Shown: piece after piece, positions 1,669 to 63,858 of the stretch
Numbering within the stretch: position 1 is the first letter of the stretch
Layout: each line of letters begins with the position of its first letter
Source of the DNA: Fodinicola acaciae
Lineage (GTDB): Bacteria > Actinomycetota > Actinomycetes > Mycobacteriales > HKI-0501
Reading direction: 5' to 3'
Length of the DNA: 64,000 bases
Assembly (NCBI RefSeq): GCF_010993745.1
Contig: NZ_WOTN01000001.1
Location: 499,235-563,234 of the forward strand
The notes under the pieces: model-generated
The model's input: the letters and a program-made list of their open reading frames with translations, nothing else
What the model was told of the DNA's origin: nothing
Database searches by the model: none
Made by a program: the position numbers and the translations under genes

Positions 1669-2759
1669 AGGTGCCGCGGTGGACGGCGCGGTTGCGGCTG
1701 GCGCTGATGTATTGCGGGATGTCGGTCGCCTCCGGCGCCGTTCTGCTGCTCATCACCTACCTGCTGGTCGTCTATCTTCCGCCCAACGCCGTCTTTCTCA
1801 AGCAGGAGAACACCACCGACGGGCCGGTGCTCTCCGGAGGCGTCGCGGGGCCGCCGGTGAACGTCGGGGCGCTGCTCGGCGTGTCGGCCATTGCCCTGGT
1901 CATCGTCGCCTTCCTGGCGCTGGCGCTGGGCTGGGAGGTCGCCGGTGGGGTGCTGCGGCCGCTGCGGACGATCACCACGCGTACGCGCCGGATCTCGGCC
2001 ACCAACCTGCAGGAACGGCTCGCCCTGGACGGACCGGCCGACGAGCTGCACGAGCTGGCCGACACGATCGACGCGCTGCTTGGCCGGCTGGAGGCGGCCT
2101 TCGACGCGCAGCGGCAGTTCGTCGCCAATGCCTCGCACGAGCTGCGTACGCCGTTGACCCGCCAGCGGGCGTTGATCGAGGTGGCGTTGGACGATCCGGA
2201 GGCCACGATCTCGTCCATGCGTGCCGCCTGCCGGCGCGTACTCGCCGCCGGTGACCAGCAGGAACGCCTCATCGAGGGGCTGCTGACGCTGGCCAGCAGC
2301 CAGCGCGGACCGGGCCGCCGCGAGCGCCTTGACCTGGCCGTACTGGCGAGCGACACCGTCGACCGCGCCGGTGCCGAGGACCTCAAGGTCGAGGTCGAGC
2401 TGGCGCCGGCGCCGGCGTACGGCGATCCGCGGCTGGTCGAGCGGCTGGTCACCAACCTCGTCGACAACGCCGTGCGGCACAACGTGCTCGGCGGCTGGAT
2501 CAGGATCACGACTCGCCGCGAAGGCGACCGTTCCGTACTCACCGTCGCCAACGGCGGCCCGGTCCTGCCGCGGGCCGAGATCGCGCGACTTTTCCAACCG
2601 TTCCAACGCTTCGACGCCGAACGCACTGGCGTACGCGACGGCCACGGCCTCGGCCTGTCCATCGTCGCCGCCATCGCCGACGCCCACAACGCCGAACTCC
2701 GCGCCGACCCCGGCACAGACGGCGGCCTGACCGTCTGGGTCGCCTTCCCGGCGCGCTAA
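1665..2759 (+). CDS. Sensor histidine kinase, partner of the upstream regulator
   Basis: Membrane histidine kinase of 364 residues. Helices lie at about 14-38 and 70-90, flanking a short extracellular loop of about 30 residues, so the sensor domain is small. A HAMP segment runs about 92-145. The phosphoacceptor is His158 in NASHELRTPLTRQ. The ATPase domain shows the N box (LVTNLVDNAVRHN) and a G box (DGHGLGLSIV). The short sensor loop suggests sensing at or within the membrane, for example by antimicrobial stress through the efflux locus; that is inference. A strong hairpin follows the stop at 2809-2831. Confidence 0.92.
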   Translation: MKVPRWTARLRLALMYCGMSVASGAVLLLITYLLVVYLPPNAVFLKQENTTDGPVLSGGVAGPPVNVGALLGVSAIALVIVAFLALALGWEVAGGVLRPLRTITTRTRRISATNLQERLALDGPADELHELADTIDALLGRLEAAFDAQRQFVANASHELRTPLTRQRALIEVALDDPEATISSMRAACRRVLAAGDQQERLIEGLLTLASSQRGPGRRERLDLAVLASDTVDRAGAEDLKVEVELAPAPAYGDPRLVERLVTNLVDNAVRHNVLGGWIRITTRREGDRSVLTVANGGPVLPRAEIARLFQPFQRFDAERTGVRDGHGLGLSIVAAIADAHNAELRADPGTDGGLTVWVAFPAR

Positions 2760-25641: not shown

Positions 25642-26517
25642 GTGGCTCGCGATAACGGATTGTACGGAGACGACAGACAGCGGCTCGCCAGGCGAGAAAT
25701 ACTGCGGCTGAGCGCTGCCGGCGCGGTCGCGCTCGGCGCCGCCGCGTGCTCTCCGAGCCAGCCGACCACGACGGCGAGCTCCGCGAAACCGCCAACCCAG
25801 GCGCCGAGTCCGACGCCGTCACCGACCCCGTCGCCGACGCCGTCGGACACCGGGCCGACGACGCTGCCGGTGCAGAAAAAGGCCATCCACACACTGAAGG
25901 AATACCAGCAGATCGTGCCGGGGACCGATCCGTTCCCGTCCAACGCCGTCGCGCTCACCATCGACGACGGCCCGCACGCGGTCTGGACGCCGAAGATCCT
26001 CCGGCTGCTGGAGCAATACGACGTGAAGGCGACCTTCTGTCAGATCGGCCAGAACGCGAAGGGCCACGCCGACCTCTCCAAGGCGATCGCCAGCGAGGGC
26101 CACCACATCGCCAACCACACGTACACACATCCGCAGCCGCTGTCGAAGAAGCCGCTCAAGACCATCCACAACGAGCTGGCCACGGCGCAGTCGTACATCG
26201 AGAACGCCTCCGGCTACGTGCCGCACCTGTTCCGCTCGCCGGGCGGTGACTGGTCGGCGGCGATCTTCAAGCAGGCCGCCGAGATGGGCCTGCTGTGCAT
26301 CGACTGGGAGGTCGACCCGAAGGACTGGACGCGGCCTGGTACGGACCTGATCCGGCTGCGGCTGCTCAAGGCCAAACCCGGCGACATCCTGCTCTGCCAC
26401 GACGGCGGCGGCGATCGGTCGCAGACGTACGCGGCGCTGAGCAAGGTGCTGCCGGTGCTCAAGTCGCGCGGCCTGCAGTTCGTACCGCTGCCCAACCCGA
26501 AGTCGGCGGCCGGCTAG
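25642..26517 (+). CDS. Lipoprotein polysaccharide deacetylase (NodB domain)
   Basis: Secreted CE4 deacetylase of 291 residues. The N-terminus has RR followed by a hydrophobic core and lipobox GAAAC (Cys36), suggesting Tat export and lipidation. A Pro/Ser/Thr linker (SPTPSPTPSPTPSDTG) follows. The catalytic domain shows motif 1 TIDDGPH, motif 2 NHTYTHP (metal His pair), motif 3 RSPGGD, motif 4 DWEVDPKDW and motif 5 LLCHDGGGD. It should remove acetyl groups from peptidoglycan or another surface N-acetyl glycan outside the membrane. GTG 25642 is preferred over TTG 25633 because of the GGTAGGG spacing. Confidence 0.92.
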   Translation: MARDNGLYGDDRQRLARREILRLSAAGAVALGAAACSPSQPTTTASSAKPPTQAPSPTPSPTPSPTPSDTGPTTLPVQKKAIHTLKEYQQIVPGTDPFPSNAVALTIDDGPHAVWTPKILRLLEQYDVKATFCQIGQNAKGHADLSKAIASEGHHIANHTYTHPQPLSKKPLKTIHNELATAQSYIENASGYVPHLFRSPGGDWSAAIFKQAAEMGLLCIDWEVDPKDWTRPGTDLIRLRLLKAKPGDILLCHDGGGDRSQTYAALSKVLPVLKSRGLQFVPLPNPKSAAG

Positions 26518-26518
26518 T

Positions 26519-26539
26519 GTCCCGAGTCTGACTCGGGAC
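26519..26539 (+). terminator. 21-bp perfect palindrome after the deacetylase gene
   Basis: GTCCCGAGTC and its exact complement flank one T at 26529, beginning 2 bp after the stop codon. It is the probable terminator of the deacetylase gene. Confidence 0.7.
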
Positions 26540-26540
26540 G

Positions 26541-26624
26541 CTAGGGGCCCGTCTCCATGTTCCGGGGGATGAGAGGCGTTTGGACTCGGCTATCGCCCCG
26601 CGGAATATGGAGACAGGCCCCTAG
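26541..26624. mobile_element. MITE-like element 1 between CTAG copies
   Basis: A 76-bp body (26545-26620) has 20-bp terminal inverted repeats matching at 18 positions (ends GGGCCCGTCTCC... and GGGCCTGTCTCC...). It is bounded by CTAG at 26541-26544 and 26621-26624. The right CTAG supplies the TAG stop of the leftward cysH gene. The interior shares GGATGAGAG and CTCGGCTATCGCC with the element at 59531-59641. There is no coding capacity. CTAG duplication is known for IS5-type elements, so a non-autonomous IS5-family relative is likely. Confidence 0.7.
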
Positions 26625-27349
26625 AGATGCAGGCCGCACTCGGTCTTCTCGCGGCCGGCCCACCGGCCGGAGCGTACGTCCTGGCCGCGCTCCACGCGTT
26701 GCGTACAAGGTGCGCAGCCAATGGACGGAAACCCCTGCGCCACCAGCGGATTCACGATCACGTCGCGCTCGGCGACGTACGCGGCCACGTCGTCGGCGGT
26801 CCAGCAGGCCAGCGGGTTGACCTTCACCTTGGCCCGCTTGGTGTCCCAGCCGACCACCGGCGAGAGCGCGCGAGACGGCGACTCGTCGCGGCGCAGACCC
26901 GCACCCCACGCCAGGTACGGGTCCAGCGCGCTGTTCAGCGGCGCGACCTTCCGCATCGCGCAGCACGCATCGGGATCGCGCGCGTAAAGGCTCTGGCCGT
27001 ACTTCTCGTTTTGGTCAGCCACCGACAAAGCCGGCTTCACCGTCACGACGTTCACGTTCAGTGTCCGCGCCACCCGGTCGCGGGTCTGCAGGGTTTGGAC
27101 GAAGTGATAGCCGGTGTCCAGGAACACCACGTCGATCGCGGCCGGAAGCACGTCCGATGCCAGCGTCGCCAGTACGGCGTCACCCATCGACGACGTCACA
27201 CAAAACTTGCTGCCGAAAGTGGCCCAGGCCCACCGCAACACGTCGTGGGGGAGCGCGCCTTCCAGGTCACGACCCGCGTCGAGCGCCAGCTCGCGCAGGT
27301 CATCGGTGCCCAACTCGGCCGTACGCGGCCGTGGCAGAGCGACAGTCAT
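26621..27349 (-). CDS. cysH: Phosphoadenylyl/adenylyl-sulfate reductase, iron-sulfur type
   Basis: Thioredoxin-dependent reductase of 242 residues. It converts activated sulfate (APS or PAPS) to sulfite. The PP-loop fold shows KFCVTSSMGDAVLA and DVVFLDTGYHFVQT. The cysteine pairs CCAMRK and CAPCTQRV are those that hold a 4Fe-4S cluster in APS-reducing enzymes, so APS is the more likely substrate. The C-terminus ends KTECGLHL with the catalytic Cys. ATG 27349 overlaps the stop of the zinc-ribbon gene and is preceded by GAGGAGATCTC. It is the last gene of the sulfite reductase operon; its TAG stop lies in MITE-like element 1. Confidence 0.93.
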   Translation of the reverse strand: MTVALPRPRTAELGTDDLRELALDAGRDLEGALPHDVLRWAWATFGSKFCVTSSMGDAVLATLASDVLPAAIDVVFLDTGYHFVQTLQTRDRVARTLNVNVVTVKPALSVADQNEKYGQSLYARDPDACCAMRKVAPLNSALDPYLAWGAGLRRDESPSRALSPVVGWDTKRAKVKVNPLACWTADDVAAYVAERDVIVNPLVAQGFPSIGCAPCTQRVERGQDVRSGRWAGREKTECGLHL

Positions 27350-56639: not shown

Positions 56640-59534
56640 ATGAGCACCGAACCCGCTGTCGAGCCAGCCGAGACGGCTGAGCAGGACGTGCCGCCGTTCA
56701 GGTACACCGCCGCGCTGGCCAGTGAGATCGAGAGCCGTTGGCAGGATCGCTGGCAGTCAGAAGGCACCTTCCACGCGCCTAACCCGACCGGGCCGATGGC
56801 CGAGCCGACGGTGGGACCCGGCGGGGTCGACCTGGTCGGCCGGCCGAAGATGTACGTGCTGGACATGTTTCCGTACCCGTCCGGCGCCGGCCTGCATGTG
56901 GGCCATCCGCTGGGTTACATCGCGACCGACGTGCTGACCCGCTTCCAGCGGATGAACGGCCACAACGTGTTGTACACGATGGGCTTCGACGCCTTCGGCC
57001 TGCCGGCGGAGCAGTACGCGGTGCAGACCGGCACGCATCCGCGCAAGACCACCGAGGACAACGTGATGGCGTTCCGCCGGCAGCTGCGCCGGCTGGGGCT
57101 GGGTCACGACGACCGCCGGTCGGTGGCGACCACCGACGTCGAGTTCTATCGCTGGACGCAGTGGATTTTCGTCCAGATTTTCAACTCCTGGTTCGACAAG
57201 AAGCAAAACAAGGCACGTCCGATCGCCGAGCTGGTCGCCGAGTTCGAGGCCGGTGAGCGGTTGGTGCCGGACGGCCGGGCCTGGTCGGCGCTGACCGAGG
57301 TCGAGCGGCGCGAGATCGTCGACGGCTATCGGCTGGCCTACCGGTCGGACGCGCCGGTCAACTGGTGTCCTGGCCTGGGTACGGTGCTGGCCAACGAGGA
57401 GGTCACCGCCGACGGCCGCAGCGAGCGCGGCAACTTCCCGGTCTTCAAGCGCAACCTGACGCAGTGGATGATGCGCATCACCGCGTACGCGGACCGGCTG
57501 ATCGACGACCTGGACCGGATGGACTGGCCGGAGCCGGTCAAGATCATGCAGCGTAACTGGATCGGCCGCTCGACCGGCGCCTCGGTCCATTTCGCTGTTG
57601 CCGATCGGGATGACGCGGGTCCGCTGACCGTTTTCACGACGCGGCCCGACACGCTGTTCGGCGCCACCTACATGGTGGTCTCGCCGGAGCATCCGATCCT
57701 GGAGACGCTGGTGCCGGCGGCCTGGCCGGACGGCACGAAGGAGTCGTGGACCGGCGGCCACGCGACGCCACGCGACGCGGTCACCTCCTACCAGTCGGAG
57801 GCCTCGCGCAAGACCGAGCTGGACCGCACCGAGGCCAAGGTCAAGACCGGTGTCTTCACCGGCGCGTACGCGGTCAACCCGGTCAACGACACGCGGATCC
57901 CGATCTTCACCTCCGACTATGTCCTGATGGGCTACGGCACCGGCGCGATCATGGCGGTGCCGGGCCAGGACCAGCGCGACTGGGACTTCACCAAGGTCTT
58001 CGACCTGCCGATCATCCGCACGGTCCAGCCGCCGGCCGGCTTCGACGGCGAGGCGTACGTCGGCGAGGGCGCGGCGATCAACTCGGCCAACGACAGCATC
58101 TCGCTGAACGGCCTGGGGGTCACCGAGGCCAAGGCGGCGATCATCGAGTGGCTGGAGCAGCGCGGCGCCGGCGAGGGCACGGTCCAGTACAAGCTGCGCG
58201 ACTGGCTGTTCAGCCGCCAGCGTTACTGGGGCGAGCCGTTCCCGATCGTGTACGACGAGACCGGTCTGCCGATCGCGCTGCCGGCCTCGATGCTGCCGGT
58301 CGAGCTGCCGGAGGTCGACGACTACTCGCCGCGCACATACGCCGACGACGACGCCAACTCGATGCCGGAACCACCGCTGGGCAAGGCGACCGACTGGGTC
58401 GAGGTCGAGCTGGATCTGGGCGACGGTCCGCGCAAATACCGGCGCGAGACCAACGTGATGCCGCAGTGGGCCGGCTCCTGCTGGTATGAGCTGCGCTATC
58501 TGGACCCGACCAACGACGACGCGATGGTCGATCCGGAGGTCGAAAAGTATTGGATGGGGCCGCGCCACGACGGTGACGTCGGCGGTGCCGACCTGTATGT
58601 CGGCGGTGTCGAGCACGCCGTGCTGCACCTGCTGTACTCGCGGTTCTGGCACAAGGTGCTGTTCGACCTGGGCCACGTCTCCAGCGCCGAGCCGTTCCAC
58701 CGGCTGGTCAACCAGGGCTACATCCAGGCGTACGCGTTCAAGGACAGCCGCGGCCAGTACGTGCCGGCCGCCGAGGTCGAGGAACGGGACGGAAAGTTCT
58801 TCTACGCCGGCGAGGAAGTGGCGCGCGAGTACGGAAAGATCGGCAAGAGCCTGAAGAACGTCGTCACGCCGGACGAGATCTGCCAGGCCTACGGTGCCGA
58901 CACGTTCCGCGTGTACGAGATGAGCACCGGTCCGCTGGAGACCTCGCGTCCGTGGGAGACCCGCGCGGTGGTCGGCGCGTATCGGTTCCTGCAGCGGGTC
59001 TGGCGGCTGCTGGTGGACGAGCAGACCGGTGGGCTGAAGATCAGCGACGCCGCGGTCGACGACGAGACGCAGCGGTTGCTGCACCGCACGATCGACGGCG
59101 TACGCAAGGATTACGCCGGCCTGAAGGCCAACACCGCGACCGCCAAGCTGATCGAGCTGACCAACCGGCTGACCGCGGTGGCGGCCAGGGAAGGCGCGGC
59201 GCCGCGCGCGGCCGTCGAGCCGCTGGTGCTGATGACCGCGCCGCTGGCGCCGCACATCGCCGAGGAGCTGTGGTCGCGGCTGGGTCACGCCCAGACGCTG
59301 ACCTTCGTCGACTTTCCCGTCGCGGACGAGAAATGGCTGGTCGCCGACGAGGTCACCTATCCGGTGCAGGTCAACGGAAAGGTGCGCGGCCGGGTGAAGG
59401 TGGCGGCAGACGCCGACTCCGACGCGGTTTTGGCCGCGGCGCTGGCCGACCCGGCCGTTTCGTCCTATGTGGACGGTCGTCAGTTGCGTAAGTCGATCGT
59501 CGTGCCGGGCCGGATCGTCACCCTGGTCGTCTAG
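56640..59534 (+). CDS. leuS: Leucyl-tRNA synthetase
   Basis: 964-residue class I synthetase. The HIGH motif appears as [16 protein letters not shown], the CP1 editing domain as [20 protein letters not shown] and [19 protein letters not shown], and KMSKS as [10 protein letters not shown]. The anticodon-binding and C-terminal tRNA domains follow, ending [11 protein letters not shown]. It charges tRNA-Leu with leucine and edits mischarged residues. Expression is probably controlled by the leader-peptide attenuator. The TAG stop lies in the left CTAG of MITE-like element 2. Confidence 0.97.
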
Positions 59535-59641
59535 GGTCTGTTTCGAAGTCCCACGTGGATGAGAGTCGAGATCCAGGCGGTCCGAGAAAGATGTGACAGC
59601 GGCTCGGCTATCGCCGCGTGGGACTTCGATACAGCCCCTAG
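59531..59641. mobile_element. MITE-like element 2 between CTAG copies
   Basis: A 103-bp body (59535-59637) has 21-bp terminal inverted repeats matching at 19 positions (GGTCTGTTTCGAAGTCCCACG and GGGCTGTATCGAAGTCCCACG on the other end). It is bounded by CTAG at 59531-59534 and 59638-59641. The left CTAG is the leuS stop; the right CTAG is the stop of the convergent GNAT gene. Removing one CTAG plus the body would leave both genes sharing one CTAG. The interior shares GGATGAGAG and CTCGGCTATCGCC with element 1. Confidence 0.75.
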
Positions 59642-60195
59642 ACCCCCAGGTCCTGTGGCCGGTCGATCCGATAGACCACGTGGTCGCGGTTGTCGATCGG
59701 GTTGTCCGGCTCCAGCTCGCCTTCCGCGACCCGGCGCAGGCCGGCCTTCTCCAGCGCTCGCCAGGATGCGCGGTTGGCCGCCGACACCGGTACGAGCACG
59801 CAGCTCGTGTCCGGATGACTCGACCAGGTGTCGTCGACGATCGCGCGGATCATCCGCGGTCCGATGCCGACGCCGGTGCGGCTCAGGTCGCCGATCAGAT
59901 AGTCGATCGAGACCGCACCGGCCGGCACCTCGGTGATGGCGCCGAGTTCGGCCAGATACGCCGGATAGTCGGCATAGCGCGAGCGCTGCACCAAGCCGAG
60001 CGGCTCGCCGTCGAGGAACACCAGCAGGTCCTCGGACGGCTCCGCGCCGCGCGCGGCAGGACCGAAGTCGCGAGCGACCGCCTCGGCCGAGGTCTCGTGA
60101 TGCCACCAGCGCGCGACGTGCGGTTGCTCCAGCCAGGCCGCCAAAAGCGGAAAGTCCGCCTCGGTCAGCCGGCGCCAGCGCCAGGTGAACTCCAT
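59638..60195 (-). CDS. GNAT acetyltransferase (aminoglycoside 6'-N-acetyltransferase-like fold)
   Basis: 185-residue protein. The pattern WRRLTEADFPLLAAWLEQPH with VARWWHH near residue 30, then VSIDYLIGDLSRTGVGIGPR and ANRASWRALEKAGLRRV, is that of the Acetyltransf_8 group, which includes AAC(6') and siderophore acylases. GVGIGPRMI is the acetyl-CoA P-loop. There is no resistance context, so no drug is assigned. Its stop codon lies in MITE-like element 2. It starts 1 bp after the next GNAT gene ends. Confidence 0.82.
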   Translation of the reverse strand: MEFTWRWRRLTEADFPLLAAWLEQPHVARWWHHETSAEAVARDFGPAARGAEPSEDLLVFLDGEPLGLVQRSRYADYPAYLAELGAITEVPAGAVSIDYLIGDLSRTGVGIGPRMIRAIVDDTWSSHPDTSCVLVPVSAANRASWRALEKAGLRRVAEGELEPDNPIDNRDHVVYRIDRPQDLGV

Positions 60196-63677: not shown

Positions 63678-63858
63678 GCACCCCGTTGATCGAGGCGATC
63701 GAGGCCGTTCCGCCAGGCCTCCAGCCGCTCCATCACCTGGCGCACCTTCCCCGGTGCCAGGCGTGCGAGCGGATGGGGACCTGACGGAACGTCACTGATC
63801 CAGCTGTGTCACGCAAACACGGCGCGCCAAGCGAAACTCGGGGGGAGGGTCGACGCGC

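What the first reader, a model, noticed from the sequence alone, without database searches (positions are those of the whole stretch)
59531..59641. MITE-like elements that insert at CTAG stop codons of convergent genes
Element 2 (59531-59641) lies between two CTAG copies that are the stop codons of leuS and of the convergent GNAT gene. Element 1 (26541-26624) has the same design and its right CTAG is the stop of cysH. CTAG is rare in high-GC genomes and occurs often at stops, where TAG can serve both strands. An element that duplicates CTAG can therefore insert between convergent genes without damage and add a hairpin terminator. The two share TIR-like ends and internal GGATGAGAG and CTCGGCTATCGCC.
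Basis: partly seen in the sequence, partly recalled or inferred. Interest (0 to 1): 0.7.

Follow-up and report, generated by a model that had tools for sequence, protein, structure and literature searches.

The report
Hairpin transposons docked on stop codons
A plant-root actinobacterium carries dozens of small hairpin-shaped jumping DNA pieces, many of which sit exactly on the stop codons of genes, rebuilding the stop as they land, and a sister species carries the same hairpin core inside different outer arms.

Summary
Confirmed. Elements 1 and 2 are two of 93 merged element loci in the window's genome, taken to be Fodinicola acaciae. The full form is a 181-182-bp end-to-end hairpin; both window copies lost the centre. 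They are best read as MITEs with IS5-type ends: E-type arms in F. feengrottensis match IS5-family ends there at 15-16 of 17 bases, but no partner for window arm types A and B was found. Outer bases fit a YTAR target in 44 of 47 copies; the duplication is probably TA, which with the element's terminal G rebuilds TAG on both strands. One filled/empty pair shows a TAA stop turned into TAG. A gene stops exactly at an element end in 30 of 47 copies, against 81 of 262 ordinary CTAGs; 23 of 47 lie between convergent genes, against 186 of 1036 gene pairs. Beyond the finding: a nearly invariant hairpin core sits inside at least five arm types in two species, both arms change together, and stem mismatches are mostly G.T on one strand (307 against 26 A.C), so one strand's fold may matter for spreading. 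Terminator action is untested. New variant of a known kind.

The parts
59531..59641 (+). Element 2: type-B hairpin MITE, 111 bp, centre of the 182-bp form deleted
   Evidence: RNA MFE -65.9 kcal/mol, z -8.1 on this strand
59531..59534 (+). left CTAG, contains the leuS TAG stop
   Evidence: the same leuS stop CTAG is present in F. feengrottensis (case 5)
59535..59556 (+). left arm (terminal inverted repeat), type B
59557..59574 (+). left core GGATGAGAGTCGAGATCC
   Evidence: 16 of its 18 columns are identical in 29 of 29 aligned full-length elements; rows were found through this motif, so this is biased
59601..59615 (+). right core GGCTCGGCTATCGCC
59616..59637 (+). right arm, type B
59638..59641 (-). 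right CTAG, contains the TAG stop of the GNAT gene
26541..26624 (+). Element 1: type-A hairpin MITE, 84 bp, centre deleted
26621..26624 (-). right CTAG of element 1, TAG stop of cysH
26514..26544 (.). collapsed CTAG-bounded hairpin of a second family (F); its left CTAG holds the stop of the plus-strand polysaccharide deacetylase gene and it shares CTAG 26541 with element 1
56640..59534 (+). leuS
59638..60195 (-). GNAT acetyltransferase gene
26621..27349 (-). cysH

Best explanation
The elements are non-autonomous, palindromic MITEs with IS5-type ends. Inferred: an IS5-family DDE transposase moves them into YTAR, mostly CTAG, duplicating TA (perhaps more). Shown: the element ends in G...C, so TA plus G gives TAG on both strands; 57 of 137 arm ends are in-frame stops, and in one filled/empty pair a TAA stop has become TAG in the same codon. 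Inferred: insertion into a stop codon therefore leaves the gene unharmed, so copies pile up at the ends of genes, especially convergent ones, mainly because those insertions survive. Shown: the full-length element is a hairpin with a nearly invariant core, and the outer arms differ between subfamilies but match each other within an element. Inferred: short copies arise when replication skips part of the hairpin at short direct repeats.
For: 93 merged element loci in the genome. Full-length hairpins. Catalogue of 47 copies: 20 have CTAG/CTAG ends; outer bases read as a TA duplication give 30 CTAG, 8 TTAG, 6 CTAA and 3 other targets, close to the IS5 targets tabulated in PMC5493358 (CTAG 15, CTAA 3, TTAG 3 of 24; passages seen). 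Filled/empty pair: F. feengrottensis has GGGGTTAGAAGGG, F. acaciae GGGGTTGG, element, CTAGAAGGG, and the minus-strand gene ends RQRPF in both, with TAA there and TAG here. Stops at ends: 30 of 47 any and 9 of 47 both, against 81 of 262 and 6 of 262 unmasked CTAGs (one search gives 82 and 6); without a CTAG requirement 57 of 137 arm ends against 87 of 524 CTAG sides. Convergent genes 23 of 47 against 186 of 1036 gene pairs (Fisher p 2.5e-6). E-type arms match ends of F. feengrottensis IS5-family elements at 15 of 17 (complete copy L156, both ends) and 16 of 17 (fragment L158) bases. At one stop codon F. acaciae carries a 28-bp copy and F. feengrottensis an IS5 fragment. All ten catalogued 28-bp copies are type B, whose two arms each carry TTCGAA.
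Against: For arm types A and B no autonomous element with matching ends was found: ends were examined at 15 of the 20 PF01609 matches in this genome, and the other 5 have no listed A or B arm site within 2 kb. The nearest IS5-family end agrees with B at 11 of 14 bases. Arm type C matches no IS end found. The complete IS5 copy with E-like ends (L156) is flanked by TAGT on both sides, which speaks for a four-base duplication. The sister species is only about 68-83% identical at the compared flanks, one empty site lacks CTAG altogether (case 2), and 4 of 10 alignments say nothing (cases 3, 4b, 6, 9). 17 of 47 copies have no stop at either end. In F. feengrottensis only 4 of 25 copies lie between convergent genes.
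Confidence: 0.8

Rival explanations
1. The hairpins are host elements, bidirectional terminators or 3'-end RNA structures, kept by host selection between convergent genes; mobility is secondary.
For: Position between convergent genes in F. acaciae, strong folding, G.T-biased stems, right-core constraint in F. feengrottensis (1 variant over 48 sites against 19 over 64 in the right arms).
Against: In F. acaciae the right core varies as much as the right arms (6 over 30 sites against 9 over 44), recent changes are symmetric (19 G.T against 23 A.C), no T run flanks element 2, orientation towards a single abutting gene is not significantly biased (17 against 9; significance judged by me, no test run), and only 4 of 25 F. 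feengrottensis copies are convergent. The two species carry different elements at the same gene ends.
Confidence: 0.13
2. REP-like single-strand hairpins moved by a Y1 (RAYT) transposase.
For: Strand-biased hairpin with a conserved imperfect stem; GTAG REPs also often supply TAG stops and lie mostly between unidirectional and convergent genes (PMC3733652, passages seen).
Against: No Y1_Tnp (PF01797) match in either Fodinicola genome, while 6 of 14 control genomes ring. The tag is at both ends, not one.
Confidence: 0.03
3. The stop-codon bias is only what the scarcity of CTAG inside genes produces; nothing else favours gene ends.
For: CTAG is rare (289 in 1.2 Mb, 44 inside coding sequence), and 81 of 262 unmasked CTAGs are stops anyway.
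Against: Elements exceed the CTAG baseline (30 of 47 against 81 of 262) and also the non-coding CTAG baseline (p 0.00095; both ends p 0.00016). Copies were treated as independent.
Confidence: 0.2

Closest known systems
IS5 family, NF033580 IS5_3 group with DUF4096
   Same: YTAR/CTAG target preference; E-type arms match ends of IS5_3-family elements in F. feengrottensis at 15-16 of 17 bases
   Different: No transposase inside; whole-length hairpin; exact partner for types A and B not found; duplication probably TA rather than the tetranucleotide reported for E. coli IS5 in PMC5493358
ERIC/IRU and Correia/NEMIS palindromic MITEs (Delihas review PMC2229807, passages seen; CREE abstract PMC2649163, start seen in the listing)
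   Same: Short mobile repeats with inverted repeats, TA at the termini and long stem-loops in RNA
   Different: No sequence relation tested; here the arms change around a fixed core, and the ends make stop codons on both strands
GTAG-tagged REPs (PMC3733652, passages seen)
   Same: Termini often provide the TAG stop to flanking genes; mostly between unidirectional and convergent genes; GT pairs in stems taken there as a hint of RNA function
   Different: REPs are 20-40 bp, tagged at one end and associated with RAYTs; the full form here is 182 bp with CTAG at both ends, and no Y1 transposase was found

Membership tests
MITE | short, multi-copy, terminal inverted repeats | tested here: met
   93 merged loci; 47 catalogued copies of 28-182 bp with matching arms
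MITE | no transposase inside | tested here: met
   catalogued copies are at most 182 bp and full ones hairpin throughout
MITE | target-site duplication | tested here: inconclusive
   CTAG/CTAG in 20 of 47; outer-base pattern and one filled/empty pair favour TA; stop-codon constraint on TAG could also explain the pattern, and IS5 copy L156 shows TAGT on both sides
MITE | autonomous relative with the same ends in the genome | tested here: inconclusive
   near match for type E in F. feengrottensis (15-16 of 17 bases), not for A, B, C
MITE | empty sites in relatives | tested here: inconclusive
   one good filled/empty pair, one partly clear (4a), one empty site without CTAG; flanks about 68-83% identical
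REP/RAYT | Y1 transposase in the genome | tested here: not met
   0 of 2 genomes
REP/RAYT | 20-40 bp with a tetranucleotide tag at one end | tested here: not met
   full form 182 bp, CTAG at both ends; only collapsed copies are 28 bp
ERIC / Correia elements | sequence homology to those families | not tested
   only structure compared, through passages
intrinsic terminator | G+C hairpin followed by a run of T | tested here: not met
   element 2 only: one search gives one match, interior and on the minus strand; no T run follows either end
Rfam RNA family | match above a gathering score | tested here: not met
   only mraW elsewhere in the window; four matches for one full copy, best 26.8 bits against a gathering score of 90

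The most novel reading that the evidence does not exclude
The core hairpin of one strand, as RNA or single-stranded DNA, is itself needed for the element to spread, and the core can change its outer arms to follow different transposases. Because the element is palindromic, capture of one new end by recombination at the core (an E-left/D-right chimera, L145, exists), followed by hairpin-templated copying, would give two matching new arms. This would explain a nearly invariant core inside at least five arm types, mismatches that are mostly G.T in every subfamily consensus, and symmetric decay of individual F. acaciae copies.
Probability: 0.3. Interest if true: 0.75.

Novelty: new variant of a known kind. 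Interest (0 to 1): 0.55.

Why it matters
It gives a clear natural case of a transposon whose ends rebuild the stop codon it lands in, on both strands, so a rare tetranucleotide becomes a safe harbour in a high-GC genome; elements of several other IS families in this genus are also flanked by CTAG. The fixed core inside changing arms, with a strong one-strand folding bias, offers a testable way in which a parasite without its own enzyme could outlive its transposase by changing ends.

Tried and rejected
Search for autonomous partners of types A and B through PF01609 and PF13359: found IS5, IS1380, IS701, IS982-like and IS1634 elements flanked by CTAG, none with A or B ends; 15 of 20 F. acaciae and 15 of 15 F. 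feengrottensis PF01609 matches were looked at as loci.

IS1380 as mobiliser: 6 of 8 copies have MITE arms directly beside them, but their ends (CCTCGGGCTTTC) do not resemble the MITE arms; read as use of the same target.

Y1/REP origin: rejected. Known RNA family: none. Relatives outside the genus: 0 of 59 other genomes (1 of the same family, 58 of the same order), one F. feengrottensis contig in genome contigs for one exact 22-mer (records near the window may be left out), no plasmid or phage match for one full copy.

Core constraint measured on both core halves was set aside because rows were found through the left core; one search repeats it on the right half only. Recent-change asymmetry summed over both species is not significant (38 G.T against 26 A.C, p 0.17); splitting by species (19 against 23 in F. 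acaciae, 19 against 3 in F. feengrottensis; p values) was done after seeing the numbers.

Orientation towards one abutting gene: 17 against 9, not convincing. Rows dropped: one search lists 47 candidates; A1 holds 29 chosen by me as representatives; one search uses 44 (dropping L041, L324, L145); one search uses 56 of 58. The catalogue of 47 demands one exact CTAG end and at most 4 arm mismatches, so it cannot contain TTAA targets and may favour stops; one search drops that demand. The gene-pair baseline counts all adjacent pairs, the elements only genes within 400 bases, so the two are not fully alike.

Full report
1. The observation. leuS and a GNAT gene stop in the two CTAGs of element 2, cysH in the right CTAG of element 1. 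The left CTAG of element 1 is not a called stop: a 31-bp CTAG-bounded hairpin of another family lies between it and the stop of a polysaccharide deacetylase gene at 26514.

2. Genome-wide. The window is G000:C1:499235-563234. The genome has 4 contigs and 8.86 Mb, as reported for F. acaciae GKU 173 in PMC7232338 (one passage seen); the sister genome G001 has a contig of 199274 bases, the length of F. feengrottensis HKI 0501 record NZ_WOTO01000008.1. The naming of both is inferred from these. The two internal motifs occur together 15 times in G000, the reversed control 0 times. Two arm types enclose them: A (41 sites with at most 2 mismatches) and B (61 sites). Listed sites merge into 93 loci: 25 with A-arm sites, 40 with B-arm sites, 25 seen only by the short end pattern, 3 by the core only (100 of 102 short-end sites were listed).

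3. Anatomy. The full form is 181-182 bp in types A and B and folds end to end. Shorter copies lack the hairpin centre: among 47 catalogued copies lengths run from 28 to 182; all ten 28-bp copies are type B, whose two arms each hold TTCGAA, so that one deletion between them gives the near-perfect palindrome. Element 2 folds at -65.9 kcal/mol on the core strand (z -8.1) and -54.5 on the other (z -6.4).

4. Target. CTAG/CTAG ends occur in 20 of 47; other frequent pairs are TTAG/CTAG (6), CCAG/CTAG (4) and CTAG/CTAA (4). Reading only the outer bases, with a TA duplication and a G...C element, gives targets CTAG 30, TTAG 8, CTAA 6, other 3. Variant bases lie at the outermost position 17 times and at the next three 7, 5 and 2 times, as TA duplication predicts; stop-codon constraint on TAG could add to this. 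Against it, the complete IS5 copy L156 has TAGT on both sides. PMC5493358 tabulates IS5 targets as CTAG 15, CTAA 3, TTAG 3 of 24 and describes a tetranucleotide duplication.

5. Stops. With the same 1500-base reach and score threshold, a gene stops exactly at an end in 30 of 47 elements (9 at both) against 81 of 262 ordinary CTAGs (6 both): p 2.7e-5 and 5.2e-5; against non-coding CTAGs p 0.00095 and 0.00016; thresholds 15 and 40 agree. Without the CTAG demand 57 of 137 arm ends are stops against 87 of 524 CTAG sides (p 2.5e-9). 23 of 47 lie between convergent genes against 186 of 1036 adjacent gene pairs. In F. feengrottensis 10 of 25 oriented copies have a stop at an end, and only 4 of 25 have genes reading in from both sides within 400 bases, weaker than in F. 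acaciae. Gene calls are my own codon-usage caller (1037 genes, 89% coding). Copies were treated as independent in all tests.

6. Does the stop predate the insertion? Ten junction alignments between the species were made (cases 1, 2, 5, cases 3, 4a, 4b, 6-9). Case 7 is the clearest: F. feengrottensis has GGGGTTAGAAGGG, F. acaciae has GGGGTTGG, a 28-bp element, then CTAGAAGGG; the minus-strand gene ends RQRPF in both, with TAA in the empty site and TAG in the filled one, as insertion into TA with an element that begins with G predicts (the left copy reads TTGG, one base off TTAG). Case 4a: the empty site reads AATAG, the filled one ATAG, element, CTAG. Case 5: leuS ends in the same CTAG in F. 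feengrottensis, where a different CTAG-bounded hairpin follows. Case 1: at one convergent pair the species carry different elements, type A at one gene's stop and a D-like element at the other's. Case 8: F. acaciae has a 28-bp copy and F. feengrottensis an IS5 fragment (97-99% identical to L156 and L158) at the stop of the same gene. Case 2 goes against a simple CTAG target: the empty site has no CTAG. Cases 3, 4b, 6 and 9 say nothing. Flanks are about 68-83% identical.

7. The core and the arms. In F. feengrottensis the same core occurs inside other arms: C, D, a D variant, and E with a small core change. Clearly distinct arm sets are A, B, C, D and E, with minor variants; A, B, D and E resemble each other (GG..TGTYTS..), C does not. 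Alignment A1 (29 of the 47 candidates) has 67 consensus pairs, 36 with changes on both sides that keep the pair; 97.6% of cells pair, against a mean of 82.5% when partners are shuffled and at most 47.2% when slid. L145 is a chimera with an E left half and a D right half.

8. Strand bias. Aligning each half to the reverse complement of the other with DNA scoring gives 307 G.T against 26 A.C mismatches over 29 elements, with 100 others. In the outer arms of 56 elements the count is 42 against 9, or 21 against 9 distinct events (p 0.04). The core strand folds better in 44 of 44 elements. Subfamily consensus pairs hold 6 to 14 G.T and 0 to 2 A.C each. Among recent changes within subfamilies, F. 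acaciae is symmetric (19 against 23), F. feengrottensis is not (19 against 3, p 0.0009); the sum is not significant (p 0.17) and the split was made afterwards. The right core varies like the right arms in F. acaciae (0.20 and 0.20 distinct changes a site) and hardly at all in F. feengrottensis (1 over 48 sites). I read this as selection on source elements more than on each copy; shared ancestry makes the consensus-level counts non-independent, and strand-biased deamination is not excluded.

9. Mobiliser. F. feengrottensis has IS5-family (NF033580) elements: L156, complete with two reading frames over the cut-off, agrees with E arms at 15 of 17 bases at either end; L158, a fragment whose frame scores 102 against a cut-off of 110, at 16 of 17 (bases counted by eye). 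F. acaciae has IS5-family elements (L154 and others; L154 has CTAG on both sides) whose left end agrees with B at 11 of 14. IS1380, IS701, IS982-like and IS1634 elements are also flanked by CTAG (the IS982 label is below cut-off for L181 and just at it for L172). Six of eight IS1380 copies have MITE arms directly beside them.

10. Range. 0 of 59 other genomes of the family and order carry the motif pair; in genome contigs one exact 22-mer hit, F. feengrottensis; no plasmid or phage match. It appears limited to the genus, within these searches.

11. Literature. In the listings of ten searches I saw no paper on Fodinicola repeats or on a MITE with this stop-rebuilding arrangement; lists were capped (for Fodinicola 15 of 35 papers shown) and subscription journals are mostly absent. 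Precedents: GTAG REPs supplying TAG stops (PMC3733652, passages), ERIC and Correia elements with TA termini (PMC2229807, passages), and the MITE review PMC10969869, whose main text has no 'stop codon', 'CTAG' or 'convergent'.

Noticed in passing
window 26514-26544; G000:C1:696937, 993218; L051 about 1720-1890; L245 about 2097-2265; L165 about 2288: A second hairpin family (F, CTAGTGTCCYGMGTC...), about 169 bp when full and 25-31 bp when collapsed, in both species, also CTAG-bounded.
   Followed up: partly
L160, L162, L166, L168, L169, L171: Six of eight copies of an IS1380-family element have MITE arms directly beside them at a CTAG or TTAG.
   Followed up: partly
L159, L161, L163, L165, L167, L170, L172, L180, L181, L182: IS701, IS982-like and IS1634 elements in Fodinicola are also flanked by CTAG (CTAA in L161), so several different transposases share this target.
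   Followed up: partly
L041 about 1628-1700; G001 stretches: Another repeat of about 70 bp (GGCGCGAAACTGTCGTACCCCTCCGGCA...) in several copies in F. feengrottensis and some in F. acaciae.
   Followed up: no
L312 about 2330-2375, minus strand: Downstream of leuS in F. feengrottensis lies a different CTAG-bounded hairpin (CTAGAGGGCTT...AAGCCCTCTAG).
   Followed up: no
L321: An E-type element is followed directly by a collapsed 26-bp palindrome of type C.
   Followed up: no
window 63699-63802: mraW RNA (RF01746), 66.5 bits.
   Followed up: no
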